Shown: positions 2,582 through 23,966 of the stretch, in pieces
Layout: every line of letters starts with the position of its first letter
Numbering within the stretch: the stretch's first letter is position 1
Assembly (NCBI GenBank): GCA_029060585.1
Contig: JAIDTS010000087.1
Span: 1-25,225 of the forward strand
Source of the DNA: Muribaculaceae bacterium
GTDB lineage: Bacteria; Bacteroidota; Bacteroidia; Bacteroidales; Muribaculaceae
Direction of reading: 5' to 3'
Length of the DNA: 25,225 bases
Translations under genes and position numbers: made by a program
The notes under the pieces: generated by a model
What the model saw: only the letters and a program-made list of their open reading frames with translations
The model's database searches: none
What the model was told of the DNA's origin: nothing

Positions 2582-2609
2582 TGCTATTGGATTATTGAAG
2601 GATTATCAA

Positions 2610-5830: not shown

Positions 5831-5862
5831 CAAAGATAGGGCAAAAAGACTGCCCTATGAAA
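5831..5862 (-). promoter_or_regulatory. susC promoter (Bacteroidetes type)
   Basis: On the minus strand, TATCTTTG (5838-5831) matches the -7 consensus TAnnTTTG perfectly. TTTC (5862-5859), one base off TTTG, lies 20 bp upstream. The predicted transcript starts near 5826, giving a leader of about 45 nt before the susC ATG at 5780. Confidence 0.7.
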
Positions 5863-6049
5863 ACTTTGCGCTTCTAATAGAGAGGCCATTTGTTGCCAAA
5901 GGCATAATTCCTGGTCAGGATATGTTAATTCAAAGGGTATCGGATGTTTCCAAAGTCATCCACAAATCGCTGTTTTTCCGCATCTTGACCATACCCATGC
6001 AGCTGCCACCACACCATGCCGCCACCTCTACAAAATCTTGGTCCGCATG

Positions 6050-6081
6050 TTTGGAGATACGCCGATTATTTATTTACTTTG
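6050..6081 (+). promoter_or_regulatory. HTCS gene promoter (Bacteroidetes type)
   Basis: TTTG (6050-6053), 20 bp, then TTACTTTG (6074-6081), which is one mismatch from TAnnTTTG. The predicted start lies about 25 nt before the ATG at 6111. This supports that start codon over the upstream in-frame ATG at 5808. Confidence 0.6.
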
Positions 6082-6110
6082 CGTGTAAAACAGAAAAAAG
6101 GCCACACATC

Positions 6111-10175: not shown

Positions 10176-10255
10176 GTTAACAATCCGCACCTATGCCGAC
10201 CAACATATACCCTCCATATGATACGCATGACACCCTCTCTTCACGAATTAATCGT

Positions 10256-10263
10256 TAATTTTG
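10256..10263 (+). promoter_or_regulatory. Probable -7 element for the GH31-GH2 transcript
   Basis: TAATTTTG matches TAnnTTTG exactly and lies 39 bp before the GH31 ATG in the 127-bp spacer after the HTCS stop. No TTTG is visible 19-21 bp upstream, so this promoter may need an activator such as the HTCS. Confidence 0.5.
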
Positions 10264-10302
10264 CATCTTGGAAAATATAAATAAACCCAACATAACCCAA
10301 AT

Positions 10303-13185
10303 ATGAAACTAACTGCAATCCCTACCATGCTGCTTGCCGGAGCCGTGCTCGCGTCGTGCGGCAGCGGGCCCTACAAAAAGGAGGCGGGAGGAGTGACCGT
10401 CAGCGTCAGCAATCCCGAGACCGCTGGAGTGAGCAAAGTGCGCCTGCAGGTGTATGGCGACAAGATCATCCGCGTCAGTGCCACTCCTGACAAGAAATTC
10501 GCCGACGAGCCGAGCCTTGCCGTGCTCGAGCGTCCGGCCGACGTTAAATTCGACATCGAAGAGACCGACTCCAGCGTATCCGTAGTGACATCGGCCGTCA
10601 AGGCTACCGTCTCGCTCGCGAGCGGAGATGTGAAGTTCTATGATAAGGACGGCAAACTGATCCTCGCAGAAGCAGACGGGGGAAGGGAGTTCTCCCCCAT
10701 CGAAGTGGAAGGCACGAAGGGCTACACCGTAAGGCAGACATTCGAGTCTCTCTCCGATGAGGAGGGAATCTACGGCCTGGGACAGCATCAGAGCGACGAG
10801 TTCAACTACAAAGGAAAGAACGAGGAGCTATTCCAATACAATACCAAGGTATCCGTACCATTCGTGGTGTCGACCGACAACTACGGCATCCTATGGGACA
10901 GCTACTCGCTCTGCCGCTGGGGCAATCCCGACGGCTACAGCCAGCTCGGAGGAGTTTTCAAGCTCTTCGACAAGGACGGGAAGGAAGGCGCGCTGACCGG
11001 CACATACGTGCCAGCCAACACAGAGGAGCCGACACTCGTGCAGCGCGAGGACTCCATCTATTTCGAACACCTTATCCGCGGCGACCTCGCCCATGTGGTC
11101 AACCTTCCGAAGGACTTCAACTTCGCCGGCAGCCACGTGACCTACGAGGGTGAGATCGAGGCTGCCGAGACCGGCGAATACAAGTTCATACTCTACTATT
11201 CCGGCTATCAGAGCGTCTGGATCGACGGCAAAGAGGTAGTGCCCGAGCGCTGGCGTACGGCATGGAACCCGAACAGCTTCAAGTTTTCCGTAAATCTCGA
11301 GGCAGGCAAACGCGTGCCCATCAAGATAGACTGGGAACCCAACGGAAGCGTGGCATACTGCAGCCTCCGCGCCTACAATCCGCGCGACCCGAAGGAGCAG
11401 ATGCAGATGAGCTGGTGGGGCGAGATGCAGGACGGCATCGACTACTACTTCGTCTACGGCGACGACATGGACGACGTCATCTCCGGCTACCGCACCCTCA
11501 CCGGCAAGGCTCCTATCATGCCGAAATGGGCCATGGGCTACTGGCAGAGCCGCGAGAAATACAACACACAGGAGGAAGTGCTCTCCACATTGGCGGAATT
11601 CCGCCGTCGTGGAATCCCTATCGACAATATCGTGATCGACTGGCTTCACTGGAAGCAGGACTCATGGGGAAGCCACGAGTTCGACCGCGACCGTTTCCCC
11701 GACCCGAAGGGAATGGTAGACACAATCCACGACATGAACGCCCGCGTGATGATCTCGGTATGGCCGAAATTCTACGTCACGACCGACCACTACAAGGAAT
11801 TCGACGAGAAGGGATGGATGTATAAGCTTCCCGTGCAGGACAGCATCCGCGACTGGGTAGGTCCCGGCTATCTCGGCTCATTCTACGACGCCTACGACCC
11901 CGAGGCGCGCAAGCTCTTCTGGAGCCAGATCAACGACCACTACGTGCCCCTCGGCATTGACGCATGGTGGATGGATGCTTCTGAGCCCAACATCCGCGAC
12001 TGCACCGACCTGCAGTACCGTAAGGACCTCATCACGCCGACTGCCCTTGGCCCGTCGACCAAATACTTCAACGCATACGCCCTCGTCAACGCCGATGCCA
12101 TCTACAACGGTCAGCGCGAGACAAATCCCTACAAGCGCGTATTTCTTCTGACCCGCTCCGGCTTCGCGGGACTCCAGCGCTACTCCACCGCCACATGGAG
12201 CGGCGACATCGCGACCCGCTGGGAAGACATGAAGGCCCAGATCTCAGCCGGACTCAACTTCGCGATGAGCGGCATCCCATGGTGGACTATGGATATCGGC
12301 GGTTTCTGCGTCGAAGACCGCTACGTGAAGGCTCAGAACGAGTTCTACAAGACCGGCAAGGAGAACGCCGACCTCAAGGAGTGGCGCGAGCTCAACACCC
12401 GCTGGTATCAGTTCGGAGCATTCGCTCCCCTCTTCCGCGCCCACGGCCAGTGGCCCTACCGCGAGATATTCAACATTGCCCCCGAAGACCATCCCGCTTA
12501 TAAATCAGTGGTCTACTACACCAACCTCCGCTACGACCTGATGCCTTACATCTACTCGCTCGCAGGAAAGACCCACTTCGACGATTACACCGTGATGCGT
12601 CCGATGGTGATGGAATTCACGGCCGACAAGGCAACACGCGGGGTGAGCGACCAATACATGTTCGGCAACGCTTTCCTCGTCGCACCGGTATACGAATACA
12701 ACGCCCGCCAGAGAGAAGTCTACTTCCCGAAGGGAGCCACATGGTATGATTTCTACACCGGCAAGGTTGTGTCTGACGGCGGCGAGACAAAAGTCGCACC
12801 CGCTCCCTACGACCTTATGCCGCTCTTCGTACGCTCGGGAGCAATCGTGCCTTTCGGACCGGAAATGCAGTGGTCCGACCAGAAACCGGCCGACATAATC
12901 AACCTCTACGTCTACACCGGCGACAACGGAGAGTTTACCCTCTATGAGGACGAGAACCTCAACTACAACTACGAGAAGGGTGCCTACTCAATGATTCCTA
13001 TGAGCTATGACAACGCTTCCGGCACGCTCACCATCGGCGCGCGCAAGGGCGAGTTCCCGGGCATGCTGAAGGAGAGGACGTTCAACATCGTCAAGGTATC
13101 GCCCGAAACTCCTGTCGGCTATTCCCGCGATGCTAAAGGACAGCAAGTTAGCTATAATGGTTCTGAAGTAAAGGTTAAGATTTAA
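10303..13185 (+). CDS. GH31 glycoside hydrolase with inserted PA14 domain, alpha-xylosidase-like lipoprotein
   Basis: A 960-residue exo-acting retaining glycosidase. The signal ends at lipobox LASC (Cys19), so it is a lipoprotein. After an N-terminal beta-sandwich, a PA14-like domain (about 228-365; GEYKFILYYSGYQSVWIDGK) is inserted before the (beta/alpha)8 barrel. The barrel has PKWAMGYWQSREKY, the nucleophile Asp558 in WWMDASEP and the acid/base Asp635 in WSGDIATRW. A DUF5110-like domain (TGDNGEFTLYEDENLNYNYE) closes the protein. From family knowledge, PA14-carrying GH31 enzymes such as those of Bacteroides and Cellvibrio xyloglucan loci are alpha-xylosidases, and the barrel motifs here resemble them. 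Alpha-glucosidase activity remains possible. The gene is followed 63 bp later by GH2 on the same strand. Confidence 0.93.
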   Translation: MKLTAIPTMLLAGAVLASCGSGPYKKEAGGVTVSVSNPETAGVSKVRLQVYGDKIIRVSATPDKKFADEPSLAVLERPADVKFDIEETDSSVSVVTSAVKATVSLASGDVKFYDKDGKLILAEADGGREFSPIEVEGTKGYTVRQTFESLSDEEGIYGLGQHQSDEFNYKGKNEELFQYNTKVSVPFVVSTDNYGILWDSYSLCRWGNPDGYSQLGGVFKLFDKDGKEGALTGTYVPANTEEPTLVQREDSIYFEHLIRGDLAHVVNLPKDFNFAGSHVTYEGEIEAAETGEYKFILYYSGYQSVWIDGKEVVPERWRTAWNPNSFKFSVNLEAGKRVPIKIDWEPNGSVAYCSLRAYNPRDPKEQMQMSWWGEMQDGIDYYFVYGDDMDDVISGYRTLTGKAPIMPKWAMGYWQSREKYNTQEEVLSTLAEFRRRGIPIDNIVIDWLHWKQDSWGSHEFDRDRFPDPKGMVDTIHDMNARVMISVWPKFYVTTDHYKEFDEKGWMYKLPVQDSIRDWVGPGYLGSFYDAYDPEARKLFWSQINDHYVPLGIDAWWMDASEPNIRDCTDLQYRKDLITPTALGPSTKYFNAYALVNADAIYNGQRETNPYKRVFLLTRSGFAGLQRYSTATWSGDIATRWEDMKAQISAGLNFAMSGIPWWTMDIGGFCVEDRYVKAQNEFYKTGKENADLKEWRELNTRWYQFGAFAPLFRAHGQWPYREIFNIAPEDHPAYKSVVYYTNLRYDLMPYIYSLAGKTHFDDYTVMRPMVMEFTADKATRGVSDQYMFGNAFLVAPVYEYNARQREVYFPKGATWYDFYTGKVVSDGGETKVAPAPYDLMPLFVRSGAIVPFGPEMQWSDQKPADIINLYVYTGDNGEFTLYEDENLNYNYEKGAYSMIPMSYDNASGTLTIGARKGEFPGMLKERTFNIVKVSPETPVGYSRDAKGQQVSYNGSEVKVKI

Positions 13186-13197
13186 ATTGCAGTCAAA

Positions 13198-13236
13198 GAC
13201 TTTAAGGTCCTTAAATACTTTAAGGTCCTTAAAGTC
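13198..13236. repeat. Tandem palindromic repeat between the GH31 and GH2 genes
   Basis: A 15-bp palindrome with a one-base centre, TTTAAGGTCCTTAAA, occurs at 13201-13215 and again at 13219-13233. The whole 39-bp stretch, bounded by GACTTTAAGG and CCTTAAAGTC, is itself a near-perfect inverted repeat. It fills most of the 63-bp intercistronic gap and can fold into one long or two short hairpins. It may be an mRNA processing or stabilizing element, an attenuator or a protein-binding site. Confidence 0.85.
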
Positions 13237-13248
13237 CTTTTATATATC

Positions 13249-15759
13249 ATGATAAATCTGAAGACAATACTCACGACGCTGCTCGTGCTCCTATTCTCAC
13301 AGTGTGCTAATGCCGCTCGTGACAACCGCGCCCTTAACTTCGACAATGGATGGAAATTCACGCTGGATAACCCTGCAGAGGCCTCCAGTCCCAATCACGA
13401 CGACACTTCATGGAGAAGCCTTGACCTTCCCCACGACTGGGCCATAGAGGGCGAATTCAGCGAGGACAATCCTTCGGGAACAGGCGGAGGCGCGCTACCC
13501 GGAGGAATAGGATGGTATCGCAAGACATTCACCTTTACGCCCTCAATGAAAGGGAAGGACGTCTACATAGACTTCGACGGAGCCTATATGAACTCCACCG
13601 TCTTCATCAATGGCCATGAACTCGGCACACGCCCCTACGGCTATGCCTCGTTCAGCTACGATCTCACGCCCTGGCTGAAGCCGGGAAAAAATGTCATCGC
13701 GGTGAGGGTGGACAATTCCGAACAACCGAATTCAAGATGGTATAGCGGATGCGGCATCTACCGCCACGTGTGGCTTCGGATACTCGACCCGGTACACGTA
13801 AGCAAATGGGGCACCTTCGTAAGGCAGGATCTTGTCACGGAGCAGAGCGCCCGGCTTTCGGTCATAACCAATGTCGAGAACAACGGAAAGAAAGCCACGA
13901 AGGCCACGTTAGTGACCACCGTCTACACTCCCGACCATGGCGTAGCGGCTACAGCCTCCACTCCCCTCCTCCTTGAGGCAGGGAAGAAAAGCGAGGTTAC
14001 ACAGAATCTCTCCGTCAGCGATCCGGAACTATGGTCGGTGAAGACTCCCCGTCTCTACACGGTAGTCAATGAAGTAAAGGTAAAGGACCGTGTCGTAGAC
14101 AGATTCGAGACACGTACAGGTTTCCGCTTCATGGAGTTTGATGCGGAGAAGGGCTTCTCGCTCAATGGGGAGCGGATGAAAATCAACGGAGTCTGCCTGC
14201 ACCACGATGCGGGAGCGCTCGGCGCTGTAGTCAACAAGGCAGCCATCACACGCCAGCTGAAGATCATGAAGGAGATGGGAGCCAATGCCATCCGCTGCTC
14301 CCATAACCCTCCGGCGCCGGAGCTTCTCGAGCTCTGCGACTCACTGGGACTGATGGTGATGGACGAGACTTTCGACATGTGGCGCAAGAAGAAGACTTCT
14401 CACGACTACTCACGCTACTTCCCTGAATGGCATGAGCGCGACCTCACCGACCTCGTGGTGCGCGACCGCAACCACCCGTCGATAATCATGTGGAGCATAG
14501 GCAACGAGGTTCTCGAGCAATGGAGCGACGCCAGCGCCGACACCCTCAGTCTCGAGCAGGCCAACCTCATCCTCAATTTCGGCCACGGCGCCGACATGCT
14601 GGCAAAGGAGGGAGAGGAAATGAGCGTCAATTCCCTGCTTACGAAGAAACTGGCCGATATGACGCGTGAGCTTGACCCGACACGTCCGGTGACTGCCGGG
14701 TGCAACGAGCCGAATCCGGGCAACCACCTGTTCCGCTCCGGCGCGCTCGACATCATAGGCTTCAATTACCACGATGATTGGTTTAAGGGTGTACCGCAGA
14801 ACTTCCCCGGCAAACCGTTCATCGTGACCGAAAGCGTATCGGCCCTGCAGACAAGAGGCTACTACCTAATGCCTTCCGACAGTATCCGACTCTGGCCAGA
14901 AAGGTGGGACAAGCCTTTCTACGACGAGTCTTTCTCCTGCTCGGCCTACGACAACTGCCACGCTCCCTGGGGCAACACCCACGAGGGAACGATGCGCCAT
15001 GTGGAAGACAATGACTTCATAATGGGACAGTTCGTATGGACCGGTTTCGACTATATCGGAGAGCCTACGCCCTACGGATGGCCGGCGCGCAGCTCCTATT
15101 TCGGACTGGTGGACCTCGCGGGCAATCCGAAGGACTCCTACTACATGTATCAGAGCCGCTGGCGCCCCGACATCGACGTGCTCCATCTCTTCCCTCACTG
15201 GAACTGGAAGGAAGGAGAGGAAGTCGACATTTGGGCCTATTTCAACAACGCCGACGAGGTGGAGCTCTTCCTCAACGGGGAATCGCTCGGACGCAAGACT
15301 CCGGAAGGAGACGCATATCATGTGATGTGGCGCGTTCCGTTCGCCCCCGGCACAATCGAGGCTGTCAGCTATAAGGATGGCAGGGAAGTGAAGCGTACGT
15401 CAAGGCATACCGCCGGAGAGCCCTATGCCCTGCGTCTGACTCCCGACCGCCCTGAGATAGCTGCCGACGGAAGCGACCTGAGCTATGTGGCCGTGGAAGT
15501 GGTGGACAAGGACGGAAACCTCTGTCCCTTGGCTGAAAACGAAATATTCTTCTCGGTGGAGGGAAGCGGATTCAACGCCGGCACCGACAATGGCTCCCCA
15601 ATCTCCCTCGAGCCCTTCAAGTCAGACCGCAAGAAGGCCTTCTACGGCCGCGCCCTCGTCATAGTCCAAAACAATGGCGAGGAAGGCGACATCCGCGTGA
15701 AAGCCGCCTCCCCCGGCCTGAAGCCGGACGCTATAAAAATCGAAAGTAAAGTAAATTGA
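13249..15759 (+). CDS. GH2 family glycoside hydrolase, beta-galactosidase-like, secreted
   Basis: An 836-residue enzyme. A signal peptide is cleaved around ANA-ARD (about residue 22). The order of domains is a GH2 sugar-binding jelly roll (about 30-185; LPHDWAIEGEF, GGIGWYRKTF), an Ig-like domain (about 190-295), a TIM barrel (about 300-600), a DUF4982-like domain (LHLFPHWNWKEGEEVDIWAY) and a C-terminal Ig/invasin-like domain (about 715-830). Acid/base Glu420 is in MWSIGNEV. The probable nucleophile Glu528 is in FIVTESVSA. This Bacteroidales GH2 subgroup is usually annotated beta-galactosidase, and substrate cannot be fixed from sequence. With the preceding alpha-xylosidase-like GH31 it would fit trimming of galactosylated side chains in xyloglucan. 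It is the last gene of its operon, with a terminator right after the stop. Confidence 0.93.
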   Translation: MINLKTILTTLLVLLFSQCANAARDNRALNFDNGWKFTLDNPAEASSPNHDDTSWRSLDLPHDWAIEGEFSEDNPSGTGGGALPGGIGWYRKTFTFTPSMKGKDVYIDFDGAYMNSTVFINGHELGTRPYGYASFSYDLTPWLKPGKNVIAVRVDNSEQPNSRWYSGCGIYRHVWLRILDPVHVSKWGTFVRQDLVTEQSARLSVITNVENNGKKATKATLVTTVYTPDHGVAATASTPLLLEAGKKSEVTQNLSVSDPELWSVKTPRLYTVVNEVKVKDRVVDRFETRTGFRFMEFDAEKGFSLNGERMKINGVCLHHDAGALGAVVNKAAITRQLKIMKEMGANAIRCSHNPPAPELLELCDSLGLMVMDETFDMWRKKKTSHDYSRYFPEWHERDLTDLVVRDRNHPSIIMWSIGNEVLEQWSDASADTLSLEQANLILNFGHGADMLAKEGEEMSVNSLLTKKLADMTRELDPTRPVTAGCNEPNPGNHLFRSGALDIIGFNYHDDWFKGVPQNFPGKPFIVTESVSALQTRGYYLMPSDSIRLWPERWDKPFYDESFSCSAYDNCHAPWGNTHEGTMRHVEDNDFIMGQFVWTGFDYIGEPTPYGWPARSSYFGLVDLAGNPKDSYYMYQSRWRPDIDVLHLFPHWNWKEGEEVDIWAYFNNADEVELFLNGESLGRKTPEGDAYHVMWRVPFAPGTIEAVSYKDGREVKRTSRHTAGEPYALRLTPDRPEIAADGSDLSYVAVEVVDKDGNLCPLAENEIFFSVEGSGFNAGTDNGSPISLEPFKSDRKKAFYGRALVIVQNNGEEGDIRVKAASPGLKPDAIKIESKVN

Positions 15760-15762
15760 AAT

Positions 15763-15793
15763 AAAAAAGAGGATCAGGTTGATCCTCTTTTTT
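15763..15793. terminator. Bidirectional intrinsic terminator
   Basis: A perfect 14-bp stem, AAAAAAGAGGATCA (15763-15776) paired with TGATCCTCTTTTTT (15780-15793), has a 3-nt loop GGT. The T run on the plus strand ends GH2 transcription, and the A run serves the minus strand. It lies 3 bp after the GH2 stop and 2 bp beyond the stop codon of the orphan SGNH fragment, so it was probably shared by the two convergent genes originally. Confidence 0.95.
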
Positions 15794-15795
15794 AT

Positions 15796-15859
15796 TTATT
15801 TCTTGAGAGCTTCCGACACCTGGTCGGCAATCTGGCGCATACCGTGGATGTTTGGGTGA
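15796..15859 (-). pseudogene. Orphan 3' end of the SGNH hydrolase gene
   Basis: On the minus strand, codons for HPNIHGMRQIADQVSEALKK and a TAA stop are read without an upstream gene. The first 15 codons match the intact SGNH hydrolase at 17010-17714 almost base for base (one mismatch in 47). The last five residues (EALKK) differ from that gene's present end (AAISNL). The stop sits next to the hairpin terminator. I read this as the original end of the hydrolase gene, separated from its body by the DUF1016 nuclease insertion. Confidence 0.85.
15813..15859. repeat. Direct repeat, left copy, flanking the nuclease insertion
   Basis: This 47-bp stretch matches 17030-17076 in the same orientation at 46 of 47 positions; the only difference is A at 15841 versus C at 17058. 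Similarity stops at once on both sides. The repeat begins CCGACACCTGG and ends GTTTGGGTGA. Confidence 0.95.
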
Positions 15860-15891
15860 ATTCGGTTTTTACTTATCTATCCTTTGCTATT

Positions 15892-16935
15892 TCAGGTTAT
15901 GCGATAGTGTTCTTTTGCGATTGCAATTGCTCGTTGTAGTTTCTCGGAAAGAAGTTTCTTGTCCGGTAATTTCGTAAAGTATTGTGCCACTTTTATCGGG
16001 GAGTCTTCGTCAAGCATCAAATATTCTATATGCTCCGTATTTCCTTCTGAGCATAAGATCAATCCAATTGGAGAGGCTTCTCCTTCTTTCCTATCATGTC
16101 TATTTAGATAGCGCAGATAAAGAAGCATCTGGCCTTCATAAGCAGGTTTAAACTTTCCAAGTTTCAGGTCAATTGCCACCAGCCTTTTCAATCCTCTATG
16201 ATAGAACAGCAAATCCAGATGATAATCAATACCATCTACAGGAATTCTTTTTTGCCTGTCGACAAAAGCAAAGTCTGAACCAAACTCTTTTATGAATAAC
16301 TGTATCTGGTTTAATATGGCAGTTTCCAAATCACTCTCACTAAAGATATCTGGGAGTCCGAGCATGTCAAGAAAGTAGGTGCTTCGGAACACCATATCCG
16401 GCTGCAGTTCGTTTTGCTCTTTAGCTTTTTTTAACTCTGACTTAATGATTTCATCAGGTCTTCTACTGATAGCTGTCCGTTCGAACAACTGAGAGTCTAT
16501 TTTTTCATCAAGCATTCGGGTTGTCCAATGTTCAAGACGGCACATTTCCATATAGAACTGGCGAGCGAGATCATTGGGAACCGACATTAAGGACCGAAGA
16601 TGAGTCCAGCTCAATTGAGTACGCACTGCATACTCAATTTCCTCTTTCGAAAAAGTGTACGCACTGCGTACACAATGCTGGAGCTTCCCATATCCCCATC
16701 CGCTCCCGTATCGCTTAAGCAATTTCTTCGAAAGATTCTTTAGAACCTTCTCTCCATATTCAGCTCTCTGATTATATAGGACATCCTCCTTGATTCTGAC
16801 ACCGACGTTCCAGTTAAGCCAGCAAGCCTCAGCGTTAACAAACACCGCTACCTTATGACGAGTGTCATCTATTATCTCACAGACATCGTCATAAAGCCTC
16901 TTCTCAATTATATCCGAATTGTTAGTTTTCTCCAT
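15892..16935 (-). CDS. DUF1016/YhcG-type PD-(D/E)XK nuclease
   Basis: A 347-residue predicted cytoplasmic nuclease. The N-terminal DUF1016 domain (about 10-155) has the family motif TQLSWTHLRSL. The C-terminal PD-(D/E)XK domain (about 175-340) shows Glu204, Asp241 in YHLDLLFYH and Asp256-x-Lys258 in AIDLKLGKF, followed by YEGQMLLYLRYL. All catalytic positions look intact. The family is common near restriction-modification genes and in mobile DNA; its role is not settled. No partner gene is present. The gene is visibly more AT-rich than the PUL and sits between direct repeats of the SGNH hydrolase 3' end, so it is very likely acquired. I see no clear promoter in the 74 bp between its ATG and the hydrolase stop. 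Confidence 0.93.
   Translation of the reverse strand: MEKTNNSDIIEKRLYDDVCEIIDDTRHKVAVFVNAEACWLNWNVGVRIKEDVLYNQRAEYGEKVLKNLSKKLLKRYGSGWGYGKLQHCVRSAYTFSKEEIEYAVRTQLSWTHLRSLMSVPNDLARQFYMEMCRLEHWTTRMLDEKIDSQLFERTAISRRPDEIIKSELKKAKEQNELQPDMVFRSTYFLDMLGLPDIFSESDLETAILNQIQLFIKEFGSDFAFVDRQKRIPVDGIDYHLDLLFYHRGLKRLVAIDLKLGKFKPAYEGQMLLYLRYLNRHDRKEGEASPIGLILCSEGNTEHIEYLMLDEDSPIKVAQYFTKLPDKKLLSEKLQRAIAIAKEHYRIT
16613..16673. repeat. Two near-identical palindromes inside the DUF1016 gene
   Basis: A 27-bp inverted repeat centred at 16626 has 13-bp arms with one mismatch. A perfect 19-bp one is centred at 16664, with arms GTGTACGCA and TGCGTACAC. They share the 15-bp core GTACGCACTGC(A/G)TAC, at 16619-16633 and 16657-16671. 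The cores are 38 bp apart and so are read in different frames (AVRT versus VRSAY). The repetition is therefore at DNA or RNA level, not protein level. Confidence 0.8.
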
Positions 16936-17009
16936 ATCACTCAGGATGCCTCGTAACAGTTGTAGCTTTATTCACTTATAGGGTCAATATCTCCAACAGC
17001 CTGACAACT

Positions 17010-17714
17010 TCACAAATTAGAAATGGCAGCCGACACCTGGTCGGCAATCTGGCGCATCCCGTGGATGTTTGGGTGACCCGAAGTCTTGTCGATGTCCTGA
17101 AGCTGGACGTAGGGCACTCCGTAGCGGTCGCAGGCCTCGACGATGGAGGTCGTTATCTCAGGTTTGAGCCCGTCGTTGATGATATAGAGGAGCTCCGTAT
17201 TGGGATAGCGGTCTACGATATGCGATAGCATATACGCTAACGCGGGGCGGAACGACTTCAGCTGCTCGGTGGTCCAGTCGCTCCAGACGAACTCTCCGAT
17301 GGGAGCATTGGCCCAGGAGTCGTTGGTGGCACCGAATATGAGCAGGATGTCAGGAGAGCCGAGGTTATCCATACGGTTGATGAATGCCCGCTCGGTGTAG
17401 TCCTCGCCGCGATAACCGGTGGTGCAGACGGTGGATCCGGAATAGGAATTGTTCTGTTCAAGCTTGTAGCCCCCCTCCTTGATAAGCTGGTGCCACCAGG
17501 TCTGCTTGACGTCGCCTACGTCCGAGCGCTTGGGATCAGGATTGGGGAAATACCACATCTCGTTGGTTTTCGGCTCCACGAAATTCTCGAAAGTGGAATA
17601 GGAGTCGCCGAGAATGGAGACGCTCTTACGGCTCTGTGCCGACACTAACGATCCGGCGGAGATGACAATGGCGGCCGAAATGGCGGCGGCGCATCTGATA
17701 AAGTTTCTTTTCAT
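17010..17714 (-). CDS. Secreted SGNH/GDSL-family hydrolase, probable esterase
   Basis: A 234-residue protein with a signal peptide (about 1-26, ending SAQ). SGNH block I is VSILGDSYSTF with nucleophile Ser38. Block III is IFGATNDSW, supplying the oxyanion-hole Asn. The C-terminal SGHPNIHGM carries the probable catalytic His214. The usual Asp three residues before this His is not present; the nearest acidic residue is Asp209. SGNH enzymes often remove acetyl groups from glycans, and the neighbouring PUL makes that plausible but unproven. The gene starts 17 bp after the stop of the AAA/nuclease gene and runs convergently to GH2. Its last residues, AAISNL, are encoded by inserted DNA in place of the original EALKK. 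Confidence 0.9.
   Translation of the reverse strand: MKRNFIRCAAAISAAIVISAGSLVSAQSRKSVSILGDSYSTFENFVEPKTNEMWYFPNPDPKRSDVGDVKQTWWHQLIKEGGYKLEQNNSYSGSTVCTTGYRGEDYTERAFINRMDNLGSPDILLIFGATNDSWANAPIGEFVWSDWTTEQLKSFRPALAYMLSHIVDRYPNTELLYIINDGLKPEITTSIVEACDRYGVPYVQLQDIDKTSGHPNIHGMRQIADQVSAAISNL
17030..17076. repeat. Direct repeat, right copy, inside the SGNH hydrolase 3' end
   Basis: This is the partner of 15813-15859 (46/47 identical). It encodes HPNIHGMRQIADQVS of the intact hydrolase. Together the two copies bound 1170 bp (15860-17029) holding only the DUF1016 nuclease gene. Confidence 0.95.
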
Positions 17715-17731: not shown

Positions 17732-19291
17732 TTATGATTCGATTTTCCAGCCCTCGATGCGCCGCGTCTCCGAGGAGAAGTTGACGCCGATTCTGAGAAG
17801 CTGACGCGTATCGGTCGCGAACTTAAGGGCATATCCATTCTCATTTATCTGGCGGAGGGCATCCTCGGCAGTCCCGTCGTATTTCAGCTCGATTACGTAG
17901 ATGTATTTCGGTGTCTCTACCAGCAGGTCGATACGCCCGTCGGAGGTATGCACCTCTGCCTTCGCGTCGATTCCTATCAGCGTAGTAAGGATATAGAAAG
18001 CGTTGTGGAAGTTGTTCTCGTTGTCCATCTTAAGGTCGTAGGGAATGCCCGCGAAATACGCGTCCAGACTCTTCATCATCTTCTCCGGCTCACCGTTGCG
18101 GATACCTTCCATGATACCGTCGATCACATTCTTAACAGTGCCGCGCTTTGGCTTCAGATATACACTGAGAAGATTTTTGAAAAGACCTTTGGTCACTTCT
18201 TCATTGGGCACCTTAAGACGCACTGAGTCGGAATCATAGTCATAGTCGGCTATAGTCAGATAACCTGTCTGATAGAGCAACGCCGTAGGATCGGCGTTAA
18301 GCAGGTCAAGTCCGGCAAGTTCATCGAGATTCCAGCTGGCATTCAGTATCCTTTCTATGTCTATATCTGCGTCATGAAGGGATTCGGCTATTACCGTCGA
18401 CGAACCGGTGGCATTCCAGTACGCTCCGATTCTTGACTCCGACATAGCATTAAGCACCGACCATGGATTGTAGATATCGCTGCCTTCAGGAGCGAACCGA
18501 TAGCCGTCATAATTCTTCTTCAGCAGGCGGCATGCGCCCTCATAATCTGTCTTTCTGGTAGTGGCCAACCTACAGATGCCTTCCTCGAAATTATCAAGCA
18601 ACTCCCTCTCGGTGATGCCGCATATATCGGCGAATTCTTCTGAGAATGAAATGTCCTTAAGATTGTTTAGATCAGAAAAGACACTCAGCTTACTGAAACG
18701 ACTGACTCCGGTCAGGAACACCAGACGTATATGCTCAGCCGAACTCTTGAAGTTGGAATAAAGGCCCGCGAGCTTCGCGCGGTAATGCTCGAAGTTGTCA
18801 TCCTTATTCAGGTTGCCCACGAGCGGCTTGTCGTATTCGTCCACGAGAATCACTACCTGACGGCCCGTCTTCTCGTGGGCATGCTTTATTATATTGCGGA
18901 ATCGCGACGAAATGTTATCAGCCTTATTCTCAACCCCGTATTTCTTCTCCCATTCCTGAAAAAGGTTGTCAAGCACGCTGTCAAGAATACCGGTTTCGTC
19001 GTACTTGTCTGTGTTGAGATCAAGACGGAGCACCGGATATGGCTCCCAGTCCCAGTCGATAGAGTCGATGTAAAGTCCCTTGAACAGTTCCTGTCTCCCC
19101 TCGAAGAAATAGCGAAGTGTAGAAAGGAACAGGCTCTTTCCGAAACGGCGAGGTCGAGCCAGAAAATAGTATTGGGTTTGACTATTTACTATTTTCTCAA
19201 TGAATGCAGTCTTATCTATGTATAGGGCGTTGCCTTCGCGCAGCGTCTTGAAGTCCTGCTGCCCTATCGGATATCTGTACTTATCTTCCAT
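17732..19291 (-). CDS. AAA-ATPase-like / PD-(D/E)XK nuclease fusion (DUF1703 type), complete copy
   Basis: A 519-residue protein from MEDKYRYPIGQQDF, the standard start of this family. The N-terminal AAA-ATPase-like domain has a Walker A RPRRFGKS (Lys52) and a Walker B ILVDEYDKP (about 145-155). The C-terminal DUF1703-type nuclease domain has Asp in GRIDLLVE and the E-x-K of YVIELKYDG (about 450-475). Family knowledge: these genes occur in many copies in Bacteroidales genomes and their role is unknown. An in-frame extension to 19471 was refused because it would contain the promoter at 19310-19341 and run into the neighbouring gene. The start is set by the promoter and family length. A second, partial copy lies at the right end of the window. 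Confidence 0.93.
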   Translation of the reverse strand: MEDKYRYPIGQQDFKTLREGNALYIDKTAFIEKIVNSQTQYYFLARPRRFGKSLFLSTLRYFFEGRQELFKGLYIDSIDWDWEPYPVLRLDLNTDKYDETGILDSVLDNLFQEWEKKYGVENKADNISSRFRNIIKHAHEKTGRQVVILVDEYDKPLVGNLNKDDNFEHYRAKLAGLYSNFKSSAEHIRLVFLTGVSRFSKLSVFSDLNNLKDISFSEEFADICGITERELLDNFEEGICRLATTRKTDYEGACRLLKKNYDGYRFAPEGSDIYNPWSVLNAMSESRIGAYWNATGSSTVIAESLHDADIDIERILNASWNLDELAGLDLLNADPTALLYQTGYLTIADYDYDSDSVRLKVPNEEVTKGLFKNLLSVYLKPKRGTVKNVIDGIMEGIRNGEPEKMMKSLDAYFAGIPYDLKMDNENNFHNAFYILTTLIGIDAKAEVHTSDGRIDLLVETPKYIYVIELKYDGTAEDALRQINENGYALKFATDTRQLLRIGVNFSSETRRIEGWKIES

Positions 19292-19309
19292 AATCTTCCT
19301 ATTTTTCCA

Positions 19310-19341
19310 CAAAGATAAGCTTTTTCCGCGGATTCTGCAAA
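19310..19341 (-). promoter_or_regulatory. Promoter of the AAA/PD-(D/E)XK gene
   Basis: On the minus strand, TTTG (19341-19338), exactly 20 bp, then TATCTTTG (19317-19310) is a perfect Bacteroidetes promoter. The -7 element ends 18 bp before the ATG at 19291, so the leader is very short and the gene is transcribed independently of the upstream TPR regulator. Confidence 0.85.
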
Positions 19342-19373
19342 TTTTGGCCGAATATGCAAAAACGGGGCGTAAA

Positions 19374-21146
19374 TCAAAGTTCTCTGAGGAGCTTGCGGAC
19401 GTAGATGCCGATGTTGGTCTCATGGCGGTCGATGCCGAGTTTCTTGCGGATGGCGCTGCTGATGTTGACATGGCTGCGCATCCGCATGTAGTTGCCTACA
19501 TCCTTGCCACGCAGACCGATGGCATATAGGCAGACATAGTTGATCTCGGCTACGGTCAGGCCATGGTCTTCGAAATACTTGATGAAAGCGGGATGCGAGG
19601 CCTGGAATGCGAGGCGGTTGCTGTCCATGAATTCCGCGGTGTTGGCCGTCAGTTCCGCAACCCAGTCATCATACGTCTTCTCAAACTCCTTATGGTCTGA
19701 AATCTGACTGGCAAGATAGGAGTTGAGCATCTCGATGCGCGTCTGGATCGCCTTGCGCACCTCCTCAGGCATCTCTTTCTGGGAGTCGAGTAGGTCCCTT
19801 AGGCCTTCGCTCTCTGATTCCAGTTCTTCAACACGGTGTGCAAGGATCTCTGCCTCCAGCACCTTGTTGTCGCGCTCGAGCTGGAGGTTCCTGTTCTCAA
19901 GAGCAAGCCGCTCACTCTCCTTCTTGAGGCTCTCATTCTCCAGTTCGGCCGTAATCACTTTTTGCTCAGCGAGGTTTTTCTTCATCCCGTTGCTTCGGAT
20001 TATCAGGACCATAATGGCTATTATCATCAAGAGACATACGATACCTCCTGTCAGCATCCACAACATCTTAGTATGCCTCTGCGCATCCCGCTCTGCCTGC
20101 AGCTCCATCCTATGCCTTTCTTCCATCGACCGGCTCTTCTGCTCGAACTTAGCGGAATTAATGGTCTCCAGTTTTAAACTCATGTCCTTATATGTAGCAA
20201 GGGCTTCTTCATATCTGCCAAGTCCTTCAAGAATTGGATATTTTATTGACAGATATTTCAATGTGTCATACTCTGCCCCGACCTCATCCAGATAATCGAG
20301 GTGCCGGATAGCCTCGTAGTTGTCTCCAAGTCTGTTGTATGCTCGTGCAAGATTCAGGATTCCGTTGACATCATATTGCACGCTGTCATTATCAATCAAC
20401 GTCTTTAAATCCTGTTTTGATCCGAAATTAAGTATGTAAGTCACTTTATCTCCCTGTAAAATTTTGTATTGCCTTTCATCAATCGTTTCAAATGTGTCAA
20501 GAATCTTGAAAAGGCTATCTGCTTGCTCCTTCCTTTTCAATATTATAGCTCCGTTCAATGCATTTAGAAGACAATCAAATTCATACCACTTAATATGTTT
20601 GCGATGGAAAATATTAGATGCTTTGATATAGTTGTCAGTATATCCAGCAAAATCATAGAATCCTTGATATATTATACCCTGCACTACCAGAGTTCTGGCA
20701 ATCGTCAACGAATCTTTACACTCCGCTGCTACATCCAATCCTCTCATGAAGGAAAGCAGGGCACTATCCCTATCATTCCTGTTCTGGTAGATTCGGCCTT
20801 GATAATAATATGTACGAAGTTTCTCATCGGGAGTTCCATTCTCAATAAAATAATCTATAGCAGGCTGCAGAACATCGAAATTCGTGGTGTCGACATAGGT
20901 CTTGTCAAGTGCCATTGATTTTAGCAGTGCATAGCGTGCCCTAAGACTCTTTTTATTCAACTCAGAGGTCTGAATTGAGTCAAGGATAATGATGGCAGAG
21001 TCCGGTCGACTTTCCATCAGGGCATCGGCCGCATCAAGTTGCCTGACTACAGAGGAAGTTCCTCCGCATCCGGACAGGCACATGATGATAGTGAATATCA
21101 TTACGGGCATTATCCTACGCATATGAAAGTACATTTTATATTTCAT
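19374..21146 (-). CDS. Membrane-spanning TPR regulator with coiled coil and C-terminal helix-turn-helix
   Basis: A 590-residue protein. The N-terminus carries a lipobox-like LSGC (Cys27). Residues about 35-345 form TPR-like helical repeats (ADALMESRPDSAIIILDSI, YYYQGRIYQNRNDRDSALL). One transmembrane helix (about 359-383) follows, then a charged coiled coil (about 385-460) and a C-terminal LuxR-like helix-turn-helix (about 520-590; LTVAEINYVCLYAIGLRGKD, VNISSAIRKKLGI). This layout, with a periplasmic sensor joined to a cytoplasmic DNA-binding domain, is found in Bacteroidales one-component regulators. It is divergent from the small secreted protein at 21462 and may control it. ATGs at 21134 and 21122 are alternatives, since the predicted -7 element lies only 5 bp before the ATG at 21146. 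Confidence 0.85.
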   Translation of the reverse strand: MKYKMYFHMRRIMPVMIFTIIMCLSGCGGTSSVVRQLDAADALMESRPDSAIIILDSIQTSELNKKSLRARYALLKSMALDKTYVDTTNFDVLQPAIDYFIENGTPDEKLRTYYYQGRIYQNRNDRDSALLSFMRGLDVAAECKDSLTIARTLVVQGIIYQGFYDFAGYTDNYIKASNIFHRKHIKWYEFDCLLNALNGAIILKRKEQADSLFKILDTFETIDERQYKILQGDKVTYILNFGSKQDLKTLIDNDSVQYDVNGILNLARAYNRLGDNYEAIRHLDYLDEVGAEYDTLKYLSIKYPILEGLGRYEEALATYKDMSLKLETINSAKFEQKSRSMEERHRMELQAERDAQRHTKMLWMLTGGIVCLLMIIAIMVLIIRSNGMKKNLAEQKVITAELENESLKKESERLALENRNLQLERDNKVLEAEILAHRVEELESESEGLRDLLDSQKEMPEEVRKAIQTRIEMLNSYLASQISDHKEFEKTYDDWVAELTANTAEFMDSNRLAFQASHPAFIKYFEDHGLTVAEINYVCLYAIGLRGKDVGNYMRMRSHVNISSAIRKKLGIDRHETNIGIYVRKLLREL

Positions 21147-21461: not shown

Positions 21462-21833
21462 ATGAAAAAGTTTTTTACACTAATCATCGTCTTTATGGCG
21501 ATAGCGCTGCCTATGACAGCGAAAGATTCTGGCAATAAGCCGAATCCGACTCCCATAATTCTTGAGTCAACGCCAAATAACAATCATCCCAATCCAACTA
21601 TACCTCGCGCTCCCATGCGCATAAGTGTGGAGGCATGGTATGATGCAGCATCCGAGACCATCTCCATTCTCTATGACGGCTATTCATCAGGAGAAGTGTT
21701 CCTCTTCCGCAACGGTGAGCTCGTAGACAGGTCCTCTGAAATCAACACCACACTACAGACATGCGGCTCCGGAGTCTATACCATCGAGATTAATGCGGAA
21801 TCGTGGTGTGCAACCGGAAGCATCGACATCTGA
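21462..21833 (+). CDS. Small secreted DUF3244-like protein
   Basis: A 123-residue protein with a signal peptide (about 1-20, MKKFFTLIIVFMAIALPMTA). A Pro/Asn-rich linker follows (about 23-50). The C-terminal beta-rich domain (about 53-123) has the pattern EVFLFRNGELVDRSSEIN and GSGVYTIEINAESW, similar to DUF3244 proteins of Bacteroidetes and to secretion-sorting beta sandwiches. Two Cys in the domain could form a disulfide in the periplasm. The function of the family is unknown. It has its own strong promoter and lies divergent to the TPR regulator. The family call is by eye. Confidence 0.75.
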   Translation: MKKFFTLIIVFMAIALPMTAKDSGNKPNPTPIILESTPNNNHPNPTIPRAPMRISVEAWYDAASETISILYDGYSSGEVFLFRNGELVDRSSEINTTLQTCGSGVYTIEINAESWCATGSIDI

Positions 21834-22011
21834 ACCTTCACCGAAATAAAAAATAGGGGAAAAGATATAAGGCGGCAACATATCTTACAGACTCAACTGT
21901 ATAAAATGCGCAGAATCTTATCATATGTTATGAGTAAAACCACAATAATACTTAACCCTTATATGCAATCTATTAACGACAGTTCTTAAAAACAAAATCC
22001 GGCAGCAATTT

Positions 22012-22027
22012 TAGGGAACAATCCCTA
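22012..22027. repeat. Short inverted repeat upstream of the lipoprotein gene
   Basis: TAGGGA and TCCCTA are separated by ACAA, a perfect 6-bp dyad 59 bp before the ATG at 22086. It may be an operator or a weak hairpin. The rest of the 252-bp spacer (21834-22085) is AT-rich with no TAnnTTTG element that I can see. Confidence 0.35.
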
Positions 22028-22085
22028 TGCATAGCCTACTTTCTATTCTATCATATCAATGATTGACAATCTAAATTTCATCAAC

Positions 22086-23030
22086 ATGAAAAAAACTTTA
22101 TATTTATTTATGGCGTGTGTGATCCTTATTTTAGGATCTTGCCAAGAATCTTCCGTATGTATGGAAGGATGTATGGAAGGCCTTCAAGATTCCTCCTCAG
22201 AAATTATTTCAATCAATCATTCCAATACCGTTAAAGATGGAGTTATAGCCAGACTAGAAGCGTACAACGACAGCCTGCTATTGATTTCAGAATCGCCATC
22301 TTCATTGAAAGGAATTCTTTCCAAACAATATGTCAATGTGGCTGTAAAGGATTTCTTTGGGTTCTGGGAAGGAGCCGCCATTGGAATAACAATAGGTGGT
22401 TTAGCAGGACCAGAAGGTGCTGCTGCTGGAGGTCTGCTTATGGGAACATTGTTTGGAGCATACCAATCTTACAAGGCCGCCGATGCAATCACAAGAGCTT
22501 ACCCTATTTCGTTCGAAGATTGCCTATCAGCTTATATCAAAATGAAAGAAGAAATATCGGATTATTCTGATTATTATCCTACCACCTTATCGTTATCACT
22601 ACCAGAAGGGAAACAGGATTTACAGCTATCGGGGGCACAACATAACTTAGTTTTAGATAATCTTCAAAAAAGAAATTTCAGTAATACTTCCCTTGAGGAT
22701 GCATATGAAAACGGAACCATCACTGAAAATGAATACAATATATTATCGTCAACTGTCACCAAAACATTCTTCACAAACATAGGATCTGGATTAAGAGTTT
22801 CTACATCCGTACTGGGAGAATTACCAAATAAGATTATTGAACTTTATAAAGGTGTAATTCTGAATTCTTCGTCTTCTTACCATGACGTAGAATACACATC
22901 GAACAAATATATATCAGAGATTTTTTCAACCATAGAGTTAGATTCTACCGAAAAAGATAATGTCACATTCGCGATTTGTGTAATGACATCAAGCGTTGAA
23001 TATTGGAAACCATTTGAGCCACAACGTTAA
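22086..23030 (+). CDS. Unrecognised AT-rich lipoprotein with a glycine-zipper segment
   Basis: A 314-residue protein of no family I recognise. The start at 22086 is preferred over the in-frame ATG at 22059 because a lipoprotein signal begins there (MKKTLYLFMACVILILGSC, lipidated Cys19). A four-residue repeat, CMEGCMEG, follows shortly after. At about residues 85-130 a hydrophobic stretch has Gly or Ala at regular spacing (GAAIGITIGGLAGPEGAAAG), as in glycine zippers of membrane-inserting proteins and some bacteriocins. The C-terminal half is polar and mostly helical by composition. Base composition is clearly more AT-rich than the PUL, suggesting transfer. Two small membrane proteins follow on the same strand. 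A toxin-like role is a guess. Confidence 0.8.
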   Translation: MKKTLYLFMACVILILGSCQESSVCMEGCMEGLQDSSSEIISINHSNTVKDGVIARLEAYNDSLLLISESPSSLKGILSKQYVNVAVKDFFGFWEGAAIGITIGGLAGPEGAAAGGLLMGTLFGAYQSYKAADAITRAYPISFEDCLSAYIKMKEEISDYSDYYPTTLSLSLPEGKQDLQLSGAQHNLVLDNLQKRNFSNTSLEDAYENGTITENEYNILSSTVTKTFFTNIGSGLRVSTSVLGELPNKIIELYKGVILNSSSSYHDVEYTSNKYISEIFSTIELDSTEKDNVTFAICVMTSSVEYWKPFEPQR

Positions 23031-23060
23031 AGTCTAAGGAACATTGTTCATGGACACGAA

Positions 23061-23096
23061 TCTCCCTCCTTCCCAACTATATTAGAAGGAGGGAGA
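23061..23096. terminator. Strong hairpin after the lipoprotein gene, possible terminator
   Basis: A perfect 12-bp stem, TCTCCCTCCTTC (23061-23072) with GAAGGAGGGAGA (23085-23096), has a 12-nt loop and starts 31 bp after the stop codon. No T-run follows on either strand, so it may end transcription imperfectly, protect the 3' end or attenuate expression of the next gene. Confidence 0.55.
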
Positions 23097-23150
23097 TATA
23101 AACAAGATAGTAAACTACACCACCGTAATTACTTCTAAAAGACAATTATC

Positions 23151-23567
23151 ATGAAAATAAATAAAAATCTAAATAGTAAATCTAATTTGAAATATAAACG
23201 CTACTGTAGTTTTATAATCCTGCTGGGAAATACCTCTGCCTTACTTGCAGAAGCTTCAATATATTCTCAGGGGGGCTATAAGAACTTTTACATAACTCCA
23301 GTATTCTTTGCCGCTTTTATTCTTACCATAGGTTATTTTTTATTCAAAGCTATTAAGTACAAAAACTTTTTTAATTTTTTCATACGGCAATACAGATACT
23401 TCTCAAAGACTCCTATGGCAATAATAATGAGTATTTTATGCTCTATTGTACTTATCTCTCGTTGCCTTCTTCCTGACGAGATCGTATATTACATTCAAAA
23501 TATCTTGTACGTTTCCTCAGGAATATTACTTTTCATCGGCAGTGTGTTTCTCGTGATTAAGAAATAA
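23151..23567 (+). CDS. Small integral membrane protein, unknown function
   Basis: A 138-residue, AT-rich protein with a basic N-terminus (MKINKNLNSKSNLKYKRY) and about four predicted membrane spans: about 20-35, 48-67, 88-105 and 115-136. The second and third are separated by a basic loop (KAIKYKNFFNFFIRQYRYF). No family is recognised. It lies 120 bp after the glycine-zipper lipoprotein, beyond the hairpin at 23061, and 27 bp before the next membrane protein, with which it probably forms an operon. Size and topology would suit an immunity protein, but no motif shows this. Confidence 0.7.
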   Translation: MKINKNLNSKSNLKYKRYCSFIILLGNTSALLAEASIYSQGGYKNFYITPVFFAAFILTIGYFLFKAIKYKNFFNFFIRQYRYFSKTPMAIIMSILCSIVLISRCLLPDEIVYYIQNILYVSSGILLFIGSVFLVIKK

Positions 23568-23594
23568 CACTTAAAACCTTGAAGAATTAAAAAT

Positions 23595-23966
23595 ATGAAA
23601 ATTATCTCTGGCCATGACACATATGCCGACGCCCTGTCTACAGCTGCGTTCGCGACAATACCTTTTATCATTTTCGGAGTCATTGGACATCCGGTTGTGA
23701 TGTATGTCTCGTCGGCATTAGGGATTCTGCTTTTTTGCGGCTTCCTGATCAGATTCGCAGTCAATCAGCACAACCACTCCACTATAAGGACTTCAAAATG
23801 GCTCTCTAATCTTATGTCTCTTCTGCAGCTCCCTTATGTCTTCGCAGTCTCCGCATTGATACTGATATCTGACGGAATCGACGCCACAATAGTCATGTGG
23901 TTCTGTCTTGCTGTCGCGGTGCTGGGGGCCATCTGGTGCATCTTTGACTCGAAAAACGCGGAATGA
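23595..23966 (+). CDS. Small integral membrane protein, unknown function
   Basis: A 123-residue protein with four hydrophobic segments: about 15-35, 37-54, 77-92 and 97-115. A His-rich loop NQHNHSTIRTS lies between spans 2 and 3, and a short charged tail ends the protein. No family is recognised. The codons are more GC-rich than those of the preceding membrane protein, so the two may have different origins although only 27 bp apart. The gene ends 32 bp from the stop of the oppositely oriented AAA/nuclease copy. The ATG at 23595 is the first in frame and fits the first span. Confidence 0.7.
   Translation: MKIISGHDTYADALSTAAFATIPFIIFGVIGHPVVMYVSSALGILLFCGFLIRFAVNQHNHSTIRTSKWLSNLMSLLQLPYVFAVSALILISDGIDATIVMWFCLAVAVLGAIWCIFDSKNAE

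What the first reader, a model, noticed from the sequence alone, without database searches (positions are those of the whole stretch)
15796..17076. Nuclease gene inserted with duplication of the 3' end of a host gene, which stays intact
A 47-bp segment of the SGNH hydrolase 3' coding end occurs on both sides of a 1170-bp insert that contains only a DUF1016 PD-(D/E)XK nuclease gene. The orphan copy continues in frame to EALKK and a stop beside the terminator, so it looks like the original gene end. The functional copy now ends on six codons (AAISNL) from the insert. The insert has no integrase or transposase. This resembles the 'insertion with long target duplication' described for restriction genes, or a homing-like nuclease cassette that spares its host gene.
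Basis: partly seen in the sequence, partly recalled or inferred. Interest (0 to 1): 0.78.

Follow-up and report, generated by a model that had tools for sequence, protein, structure and literature searches.

The report
Nuclease gene inserted with long duplication
A lone DNA-cutting (probable phage-defence) gene has been dropped into the tail end of another gene in a gut-type bacterium, copying 47 bases of that tail so the host gene keeps a complete reading frame, and the same signature recurs around this kind of gene, and around some unrelated lone genes, in related bacteria.

Summary
A 47-nt segment (46 identical) of the SGNH gene's 3' end flanks a 1170-bp insert holding only an intact DUF1016/YhcG nuclease gene. 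Relatives L001 and L004 have the uninterrupted site: one copy, gene end (ALKK, VMSK), hairpin, GH2, no nuclease. [quoted passage not shown] the orphan keeps the original gene end.

It recurs. Among Muribaculaceae loci not chosen for repeats, close two-copy flanking repeats occur at 9 of 115 curated DUF1016 genes and 2 of 305 neighbouring ORFs (p = 2e-4; looser filters give weaker contrast). In a Bacteroidota sample: 5 of 67. At hydF, a relative 96-98% identical holds exactly one 82-nt copy and no nuclease. Nineteen repeats, 23-215 nt, share no core.

It is not clearly nuclease-specific: Fic genes score 5 of 67 (four look like hairpins or promoters), Bro-N/Fic 5 of 29, AAA-ATPase genes 0 of 48. 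Best reading: bare genes captured at gene edges by non-site-specific insertion, as described for restriction-modification genes. The joining step is inferred.

The parts
17010..17714 (-). Host gene: SGNH/GDSL-like hydrolase, 234 aa, last gene of a SusCD/GH31/GH2 cluster; now ends ...QVSAAISNL*
   Evidence: Pfam PF16255 265.9 bits; C-terminus
17030..17076 (-). Copy 1 of the duplicated 47-nt target, inside the functional SGNH gene
17010..17029 (-). First 20 nt of the insert, supplying the new C-terminal codons and stop (AAISNL*; the first base of the first Ala codon lies in the repeat)
   Evidence: L001, L002, L004, L012 end in ALKK, VLKK, VMSK, VLK
15860..17029 (.). Insert, 1170 bp, 41% GC against 54% for flanks
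   Evidence: no match to it in the 15 SGNH loci L001-L015 as far as they reach
15892..16935 (-). DUF1016/YhcG PD-(D/E)XK nuclease gene, 347 aa, full length, co-directional with SGNH; PADLOC class PDC-S02
   Evidence: Pfam, PADLOC 383.9 bits; D241 and K258 invariant among 18 aligned homologues
15813..15859 (-). Copy 2 (orphan) of the duplicated 47-nt target
15796..15812 (-). Original end of the SGNH gene (completes EALKK and stop)
   Evidence: collinear with L001 and L004
15759..15797 (.). Terminator-like hairpin (18-bp perfect arms, 3-nt loop) that originally followed SGNH and now follows the nuclease
   Evidence: a like hairpin directly after SGNH in L001, L002, L004, L012
13249..15759 (+). 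GH2 glycosidase, convergent neighbour that anchors the far flank of the empty site
   Evidence: L001 right flank 81.9% over 871 nt, L004 76.2% over 869 nt

Best explanation
A bare single-gene unit (DUF1016 nuclease ORF plus 94 bp upstream and 32 bp downstream) inserted into the 3' end of the SGNH gene and duplicated 47 bp of the target. SHOWN: the empty site in relatives, the duplication, the collinearity of the orphan copy with the terminator, and recurrence of such repeats around DUF1016 genes at unrelated sites. INFERRED: the DNA joined by a non-site-specific route that leaves variable long target duplications. Either a fragment was captured at a break with widely staggered nicks whose overhangs were filled in, or a replication fork switched template out to the donor gene and back to a point upstream of where it left. 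INFERRED: insertions at gene edges are the ones seen because the duplication leaves a complete or near-complete host gene. Here the nuclease now lies between SGNH and its terminator and can be co-transcribed with SGNH. The nuclease is cargo, probably a single-gene phage-defence candidate, and not the enzyme that moves the unit.
For: Repeat and insert. Empty sites: L001 and L004 align collinearly on both sides with overlaps of 46 and 44 nt, the size of the repeat. Exact second case: hydF in G144 (L219), left flank plus copy ends at 2486, right copy starts at 2405, overlap 82 nt = the repeat, 96-98% identity, no match to the nuclease gene; G167 (L221, 81% and 76% identity) has the same arrangement. 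Recurrence: 8 of 63 and 3 of 54 DUF1016 ORFs not chosen for repeats; curated 9 of 115 versus 2 of 305 neighbour ORFs, p = 2.2e-4; 5 of 67 in a Bacteroidota sample. Single-gene unit: L083/L086 share 1225 nt at 90% and nothing else found by blastn in 14.5 and 15.0 kb; L091/L093 share 1131 nt at 87% and nothing else in 9.0 and 8.8 kb. No inverted repeat longer than 8 nt within 150 nt of the ends of 14 inserts. No shared core among 19 repeats. Close repeats also at Fic 5/67 and Bro-N/Fic 5/29 (172 nt in L394 and 116 nt in L415 are the clear independent ones), which suggests that the cargo's own activity is not needed.
Against: 106 of the 115 curated DUF1016 genes show no close flanking repeat; these may be old or may have arrived otherwise. 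Without the two-copy and closeness filters the contrast is weaker: 9 of 63 against 7 of 138, p = 0.028. AAA-ATPase_like genes, also lone accessory genes, show no close repeat (0 of 48), so the route is not equally open to all genes; DUF1016 versus AAA is p = 0.039. Four of the five Fic repeats look like hairpins or promoters by eye, and two of the five Bro-N/Fic repeats (L388, L389) lie at the L126 site, which holds DUF1016 in G068. No donor copy is known for this insert, so junction microhomology cannot be checked. The empty-site relatives of the window are 76-82% identical in DNA, not the same species.
Confidence: 0.72

Rival explanations
1. Homing-like self-mobilisation: the DUF1016 nuclease cuts the target (with a wide stagger) and its own gene is copied in, so the nuclease drives its insertion.
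For: Nuclease motif intact; the insert is just the gene; the host gene is spared; AAA-ATPase genes show no close repeats and most Fic repeats look like hairpins or promoters by eye.
Against: Targets share no sequence core and lie in unrelated genes. Fic genes show close repeats at a similar rate (DUF1016 versus Fic p = 1.0) and Bro-N/Fic loci L394 and L415 carry 172- and 116-nt repeats. At the L126 site the nuclease is replaced by a Bro-N/Fic gene inside the same flanks in G118 and G144.
Confidence: 0.12
2. A circle carrying the gene and a copy of the target piece integrated by one homologous crossover, which automatically yields flanking direct repeats (circle insertion is the model proposed for transposed Arabidopsis genes with flanking repeats, PMC2869330, abstract seen).
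For: Explains variable repeat length and sparing of the host gene; would also allow spread of an existing insertion between strains.
Against: Needs every donor circle to carry already the right target piece, so it explains spread between strains, not first arrival; repeats as short as 23-47 nt are poor substrates for homologous recombination (general knowledge).
Confidence: 0.15
3. Remnant or satellite of an integrative element that uses an integrase in trans and a gene-end attachment site.
For: 3' gene ends are classical attachment sites (general knowledge) and the host gene end is restored.
Against: No shared core in 19 repeats, lengths 23-215 nt; no integrase domain in the 14 window proteins scanned; 5' ends and terminators are hit as well as 3' ends.
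Confidence: 0.03
4. The orphan is the relic of a decayed tandem SGNH duplicate, or the arrangement is an assembly artefact.
For: Only that a 47-nt homologous fragment is present and that the source of the window is not known.
Against: The orphan is exactly the part that joins the terminator and GH2 in L001 and L004; no further SGNH repeat was found beside it; the copies differ by one base; the same kind of arrangement occurs at hydF in two genomes (G068, G118).
Confidence: 0.02

Closest known systems
Insertion with long target duplication of restriction-modification genes (Nobusato et al. 2000 Gene 259:99; Furuta et al. 2010 NAR 38:2428; neither paper read, known here from passages of PMC3031569, PMC3874152 and PMC1643837)
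   Same: Gene inserted without a mobile element, long and variable direct duplication of the target ('in the order of 100 bp', PMC3874152), seen by comparison with a relative
   Different: Here the cargo is a lone DUF1016 nuclease gene without a methyltransferase, in Bacteroidota; some lone Fic and Bro-N/Fic genes show flanking repeats too
DUF1016/YhcG (COG4804, PF06250 + PF17761) PD-(D/E)XK nucleases; PADLOC candidate PDC-S02
   Same: Both domains above cut-off, nuclease motif kept
   Different: No functional difference shown; the mobility pattern of the family is the new part
Transposed Arabidopsis genes with flanking repeats (PMC2869330, abstract seen)
   Same: Single non-transposon genes flanked by direct repeats homologous to the target site, mostly genic
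   Different: Eukaryote; circle insertion proposed; no evolutionary link implied
Homing endonuclease genes (recalled, no paper consulted)
   Same: Solitary nuclease gene that leaves the host gene working
   Different: No fixed target, long duplication, and some non-nuclease genes look alike

Membership tests
DUF1016/YhcG nuclease family | DUF1016_N and YhcG_C domains above Pfam gathering scores | tested here: met
   121.3 and 154.1 bits against cut-offs 32.8 and 32.5
DUF1016/YhcG nuclease family | PD-(D/E)XK catalytic motif | tested here: met
   D241 and K258 invariant in 18 sequences, D256 in the window; motif as described in PMC1189080 passages. Activity itself not tested
PADLOC PDC-S02 (candidate phage defence) | Match to PDC-S02 profiles | tested here: met
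   PDLC04807 383.9 bits; candidate status only (PMC10855318 passages)
Insertion with long target duplication | Single-copy target in relatives without the insert | tested here: met
   L001 and L004 for the window; G144 and G167 for hydF
Insertion with long target duplication | Long, variable direct duplication at different sites | tested here: met
   19 hand-picked loci, 23-215 nt, median 56; single-copy state proven at two of these sites only
Insertion with long target duplication | No transposase, integrase or terminal inverted repeats | tested here: met
   14 window proteins; ends of 14 inserts. Other loci were not scanned for integrases
Insertion with long target duplication | Association with restriction-modification genes (usual cargo in the literature) | tested here: not met
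   The insert holds one gene, the nuclease, and no methyltransferase. L138 lies beside a type I restriction gene and L472 beside a Type ISP gene; the other 8 host genes scanned are unrelated
Homing endonuclease gene | Insertion into a fixed target sequence | tested here: not met
   No shared word of 12 nt or more in 171 pairs of repeats
Integrase-type element in a gene 3' end | Integrase gene and constant attachment core | tested here: not met
   (window only)

The most novel reading that the evidence does not exclude
In Bacteroidota, bare single genes of unrelated families (DUF1016 nucleases, Bro-N/Fic and perhaps other Fic proteins) are moved by one common, still unidentified route that inserts an ORF with short untranslated flanks at the edges of host genes with 20-215 bp target duplications and needs no transposase, integrase or cargo activity; ORFs at such sites can also be exchanged. 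This would be a general way in which single-gene defence systems spread.
Probability: 0.4. Interest if true: 0.8.

Novelty: new variant of a known kind. Interest (0 to 1): 0.6.

Why it matters
How single defence genes without any mobile element get into new sites is an open question. These loci offer before-and-after comparisons with measurable duplications, so models of the joining step (staggered break repair, template switching, circle integration) can be tested on natural junctions and then in a laboratory Bacteroides strain. The finding also shows that a defence candidate can enter beside a host gene without breaking its reading frame. Identity between the two copies of such a repeat could serve as a clock for the age of an arrival.

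Tried and rejected
No genome is held for the window, so its own genome could not be searched. One call was ill-formed (a locus where a genome handle was needed) and one did not complete because the machine was busy (repeated unchanged). Furuta et al. 2010 is not held.

Dropped as not being target duplications, by eye: L094/L024 (array of intergenic repeats), L099/L045 (short simple repeats), L097/L018, L102/L075 and L040 (repeats that look like Bacteroidales promoters, motif recalled), L145 (two tandem DUF1016 genes, so a tandem duplication). L131 was merged with L136 (same hydF site). L100/L017 was left out because its copies lie far apart; L132 (27 nt) because the tool found five copies. L426 and L453 fail the closeness or copy filter. 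Among the 19 listed loci some are weak: L161 (promoter-like), L101 (23 nt), L096 (819 nt downstream), L095 (gene broken, 556 nt upstream), L427 (76-83% identity), L437 (86%), L077 (complex, with masked bases).

Selection. L094-L102 were fetched because one search had shown repeats there, so the counts are biased and were not used; L113 and L114 are not in the counted sets either. L117-L176 were taken down the list without looking at their sequence, skipping places near contig ends, fragments and some others. The phylum sample is 30 best-match loci plus 40 further down the list, not every place; it may include Muribaculaceae. Relatedness among the remaining counted loci was not removed further. 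One search printed five thresholds with three filters; p ran from 6.7e-5 to 0.028. At 40 bits without filters the counts are DUF1016 9 of 63 and 9 of 54, neighbours 7 of 138 and 5 of 167, Fic 7 of 67, AAA 3 of 48, Bro-N/Fic 5 of 29. Fic and Bro-N/Fic repeats were not curated for the counts; by eye three of the five Fic repeats are hairpin-like (L323, L334, L340), one promoter-like (L305), one a coding end (L327), and L403 is promoter-like.

Specificity for nucleases was my early idea; the Fic count did not bear it out.

E. coli was tried as a strain-level test: the plasmid gene from H24 found only 2 of 5426 genomes, both on plasmids. The two viral contigs (L046, L047) showed no flanking repeat. 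Empty sites for L114, L138, L173 and L095 gave the host gene in relatives but not both flanks cleanly, and these loci were not inspected further; for L114 the dprA match in G407 stops near the gene end. For L126, G156 aligns with the genes on both sides and has no ORF of 50 aa or more between them. In G144 the hydF gene holds about 286 extra nt further inside, away from the duplicated segment; not explained.

A structure prediction was not run. A sequence search of solved structures found none.

Full report
OBSERVATION. The 47-nt segment lies at 15813-15859 and 17030-17076 with one mismatch and the same orientation. The 1170 bp between hold one gene, 15892-16935(-), with DUF1016_N and YhcG_C domains far above cut-off. 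Read on the minus strand, the SGNH gene ends ...QVSAAISNL*, while the orphan copy reads HPNIHGMRQIADQVSEALKK* and its stop codon touches the terminator hairpin. The score of 85 bits compares with a maximum of 29.5 in 100 Markov shuffles. GC is 41% in the insert and 54% in the flanks.

EMPTY SITE. A scan of GTDB genome contigs with the SGNH protein gave 15 loci, 14 from Muribaculaceae or 'Porphyromonadaceae' MAGs and one from an isolate. None matched the insert, as far as the loci reach. In L001 the SGNH side aligns to 1303-1987 and the orphan side to 1942-2807 (79.7% and 81.9% identity); in L004 the alignments are 2983-3665 and 3622-4483 (76%). The overlaps, 46 and 44 nt, are the size of the repeat, and the right side runs through the terminator into the same GH2 gene. 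In L001, L002, L004 and L012 the gene ends in ALKK, VLKK, VMSK or VLK directly before a like hairpin; in L002 and L012 the far side is a different gene. So the orphan end is ancestral, AAISNL came with the insert, and the event duplicated 47 bp of target.

IS IT A HABIT OF THE FAMILY? The window protein was searched in 397 genomes of the family (283 with a match) and in the 15 genomes behind the SGNH loci (15 of 15). For each gene I compared up to 1.5 kb upstream with 1.5 kb downstream for direct repeats. The strict class was 40 bits or more, only two copies in the locus, both within 300 nt of the gene. Counted sets: L117-L176, taken down the list without looking at them, 8 of 63 DUF1016 ORFs; L016-L045 and L048-L076, the tool's best-match loci, 3 of 54. 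Neighbouring ORFs: 1 of 138 and 1 of 167 in L077-L116. After removing a tandem DUF1016 duplication (L145) and one repeated site (L131), the figures are 9 of 115 against 2 of 305, Fisher p = 2.2e-4. Without the copy and closeness filters the contrast is 9 of 63 against 7 of 138, p = 0.028. In a Bacteroidota sample, 5 of 67 (only 4 control ORFs there, so no real control).

WHERE THEY SIT. Nineteen hand-picked DUF1016 loci have repeats of 23-215 nt, median 56. The duplicated piece is a 3' coding end in DprA (L114, including its stop), a RecD2-like helicase (L095), a transglutaminase-like protein (L096), a Type ISP enzyme (L472), a glutamate dehydrogenase-family protein (L474) and a peptidyl-prolyl isomerase (L437). 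It is a 5' coding end in HydF (L136/L131), a type I restriction R subunit (L138), a helicase (L126) and the start regions of L113 and L101. It is terminator-like after groEL (L173) and in L487 (names from Pfam except L113, L101 and L487, which were read by eye). Many are co-directional with the host gene by eye; this was not tested.

SECOND EXACT EMPTY SITE. At hydF, query and relative are 96-98% identical. In G144 the left flank with copy 1 ends at 2486 and copy 2 with the right flank begins at 2405, an overlap of 82 nt, exactly the repeat; the nuclease gene has no match. In G167 the arrangement is the same (81% and 76% identity; the first 19 nt of the right copy did not align). By reading the sequence, the downstream hydF ORF now takes its start codon from the end of the insert, mirroring the window, where SGNH takes its stop from the insert.

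ONE GENE IS THE UNIT. DUF1016 genes at different sites can share only the gene. L083 and L086 share 1225 nt at 90% and nothing else found by blastn in 14.5 and 15.0 kb; L091 and L093 share 1131 nt at 87% and nothing else in 9.0 and 8.8 kb. The shared pieces start 129 and 32 nt before the ORF and stop 15 and 20 nt after it, like the inserts bounded by repeats.

CONTROLS THAT CHANGED THE READING. Fic genes, accessory but not nucleases, score 5 of 67; AAA-ATPase_like/PDDEXK_9 relatives of the window's neighbour score 0 of 48. A Bro-N/Fic family scores 5 of 29, or 4 of 28 with one site merged. DUF1016 does not differ from Fic (p = 1.0). But by eye four of the five Fic repeats are hairpin- or promoter-like, which can recur without target duplication; the clearest non-nuclease cases are the Bro-N/Fic loci L394 (172 nt, 94%) and L415 (116 nt, 98%). 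At the L126 site, G118 and G144 carry a Bro-N/Fic gene instead of DUF1016, inside the same 5' leader and the same flanking copies, and G156 has neither: an ORF exchange. So the mobility is probably not a property of nuclease activity, though that is not proven.

MECHANISM. Repeats share no word of 12 nt in 171 pairs, insert ends have no inverted repeat beyond 8 nt, and no integrase or transposase domain was found in the 14 window proteins scanned. This speaks against a normal transposon or attachment-site element. What remains is non-site-specific joining with a long duplication, by filling in a widely staggered break or by template switching during replication, followed by selection for insertions that leave host genes working. 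Without a donor copy the two cannot be told apart here. In the window the insertion places the nuclease between SGNH and its terminator, so co-transcription is likely but untested.

KNOWN KIND. Insertion with long, variable target duplication was described for restriction-modification genes in Helicobacter pylori and others; I saw this in passages of PMC3031569, PMC3874152 and PMC1643837, and did not read the original papers. YhcG is described as a PD-(D/E)XK family without assigned function and without obvious conserved neighbours (PMC1189080 passages). PADLOC lists it as candidate PDC-S02. A full-text search for DUF1016 gave 10 papers, none with the word in title or abstract; of these I read only passages of PMC4316617, which report DUF1016 on integrative conjugative elements. 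The searches listed no paper on long target duplications around DUF1016 or Fic genes, judged by titles and abstract starts of the rows shown, and those found none; most subscription papers are not in that library.

Noticed in passing
L369:480-1364, L370, L126 (G118, G144, G068): At one site a DUF1016 gene and a Bro-N/Fic gene replace each other inside the same 5' leader (identity runs to 3 nt before the start codon) and the same flanking copies; in G118 and G144 a remnant of a Bro-N/Fic 5' end follows the intact gene.
   Followed up: partly
window 17732-19471 and 23999-25120: Two AAA-ATPase_like/PDDEXK_9 genes, 81% identical over 1238 nt, lie 6.3 kb apart in the same orientation; the match runs to the window's end.
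   Followed up: partly
window 893-17714: The host gene ends what looks like a polysaccharide utilisation cluster: SusD, SusC-like receptor, hybrid two-component regulator, GH31, GH2, SGNH hydrolase.
   Followed up: no
window 21462-23966: Four ORFs of 123-323 aa on the + strand between the two AAA-ATPase genes have no Pfam match.
   Followed up: no
L284, L323, L334, L340 (Fic loci): Fic genes flanked by 32-144 nt direct repeats, some of them hairpin-like; L340 has an identical 32-nt hairpin touching both ends of the ORF.
   Followed up: no
L219 (G144): The hydF region of the empty-site relative holds about 286 extra nt further inside, away from the duplicated segment.
   Followed up: no
L367 (E. 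coli plasmid pECO-109b): On this plasmid the DUF1016 gene overlaps a site-specific integrase gene, a different mode of carriage from the lone genes studied here.
   Followed up: no
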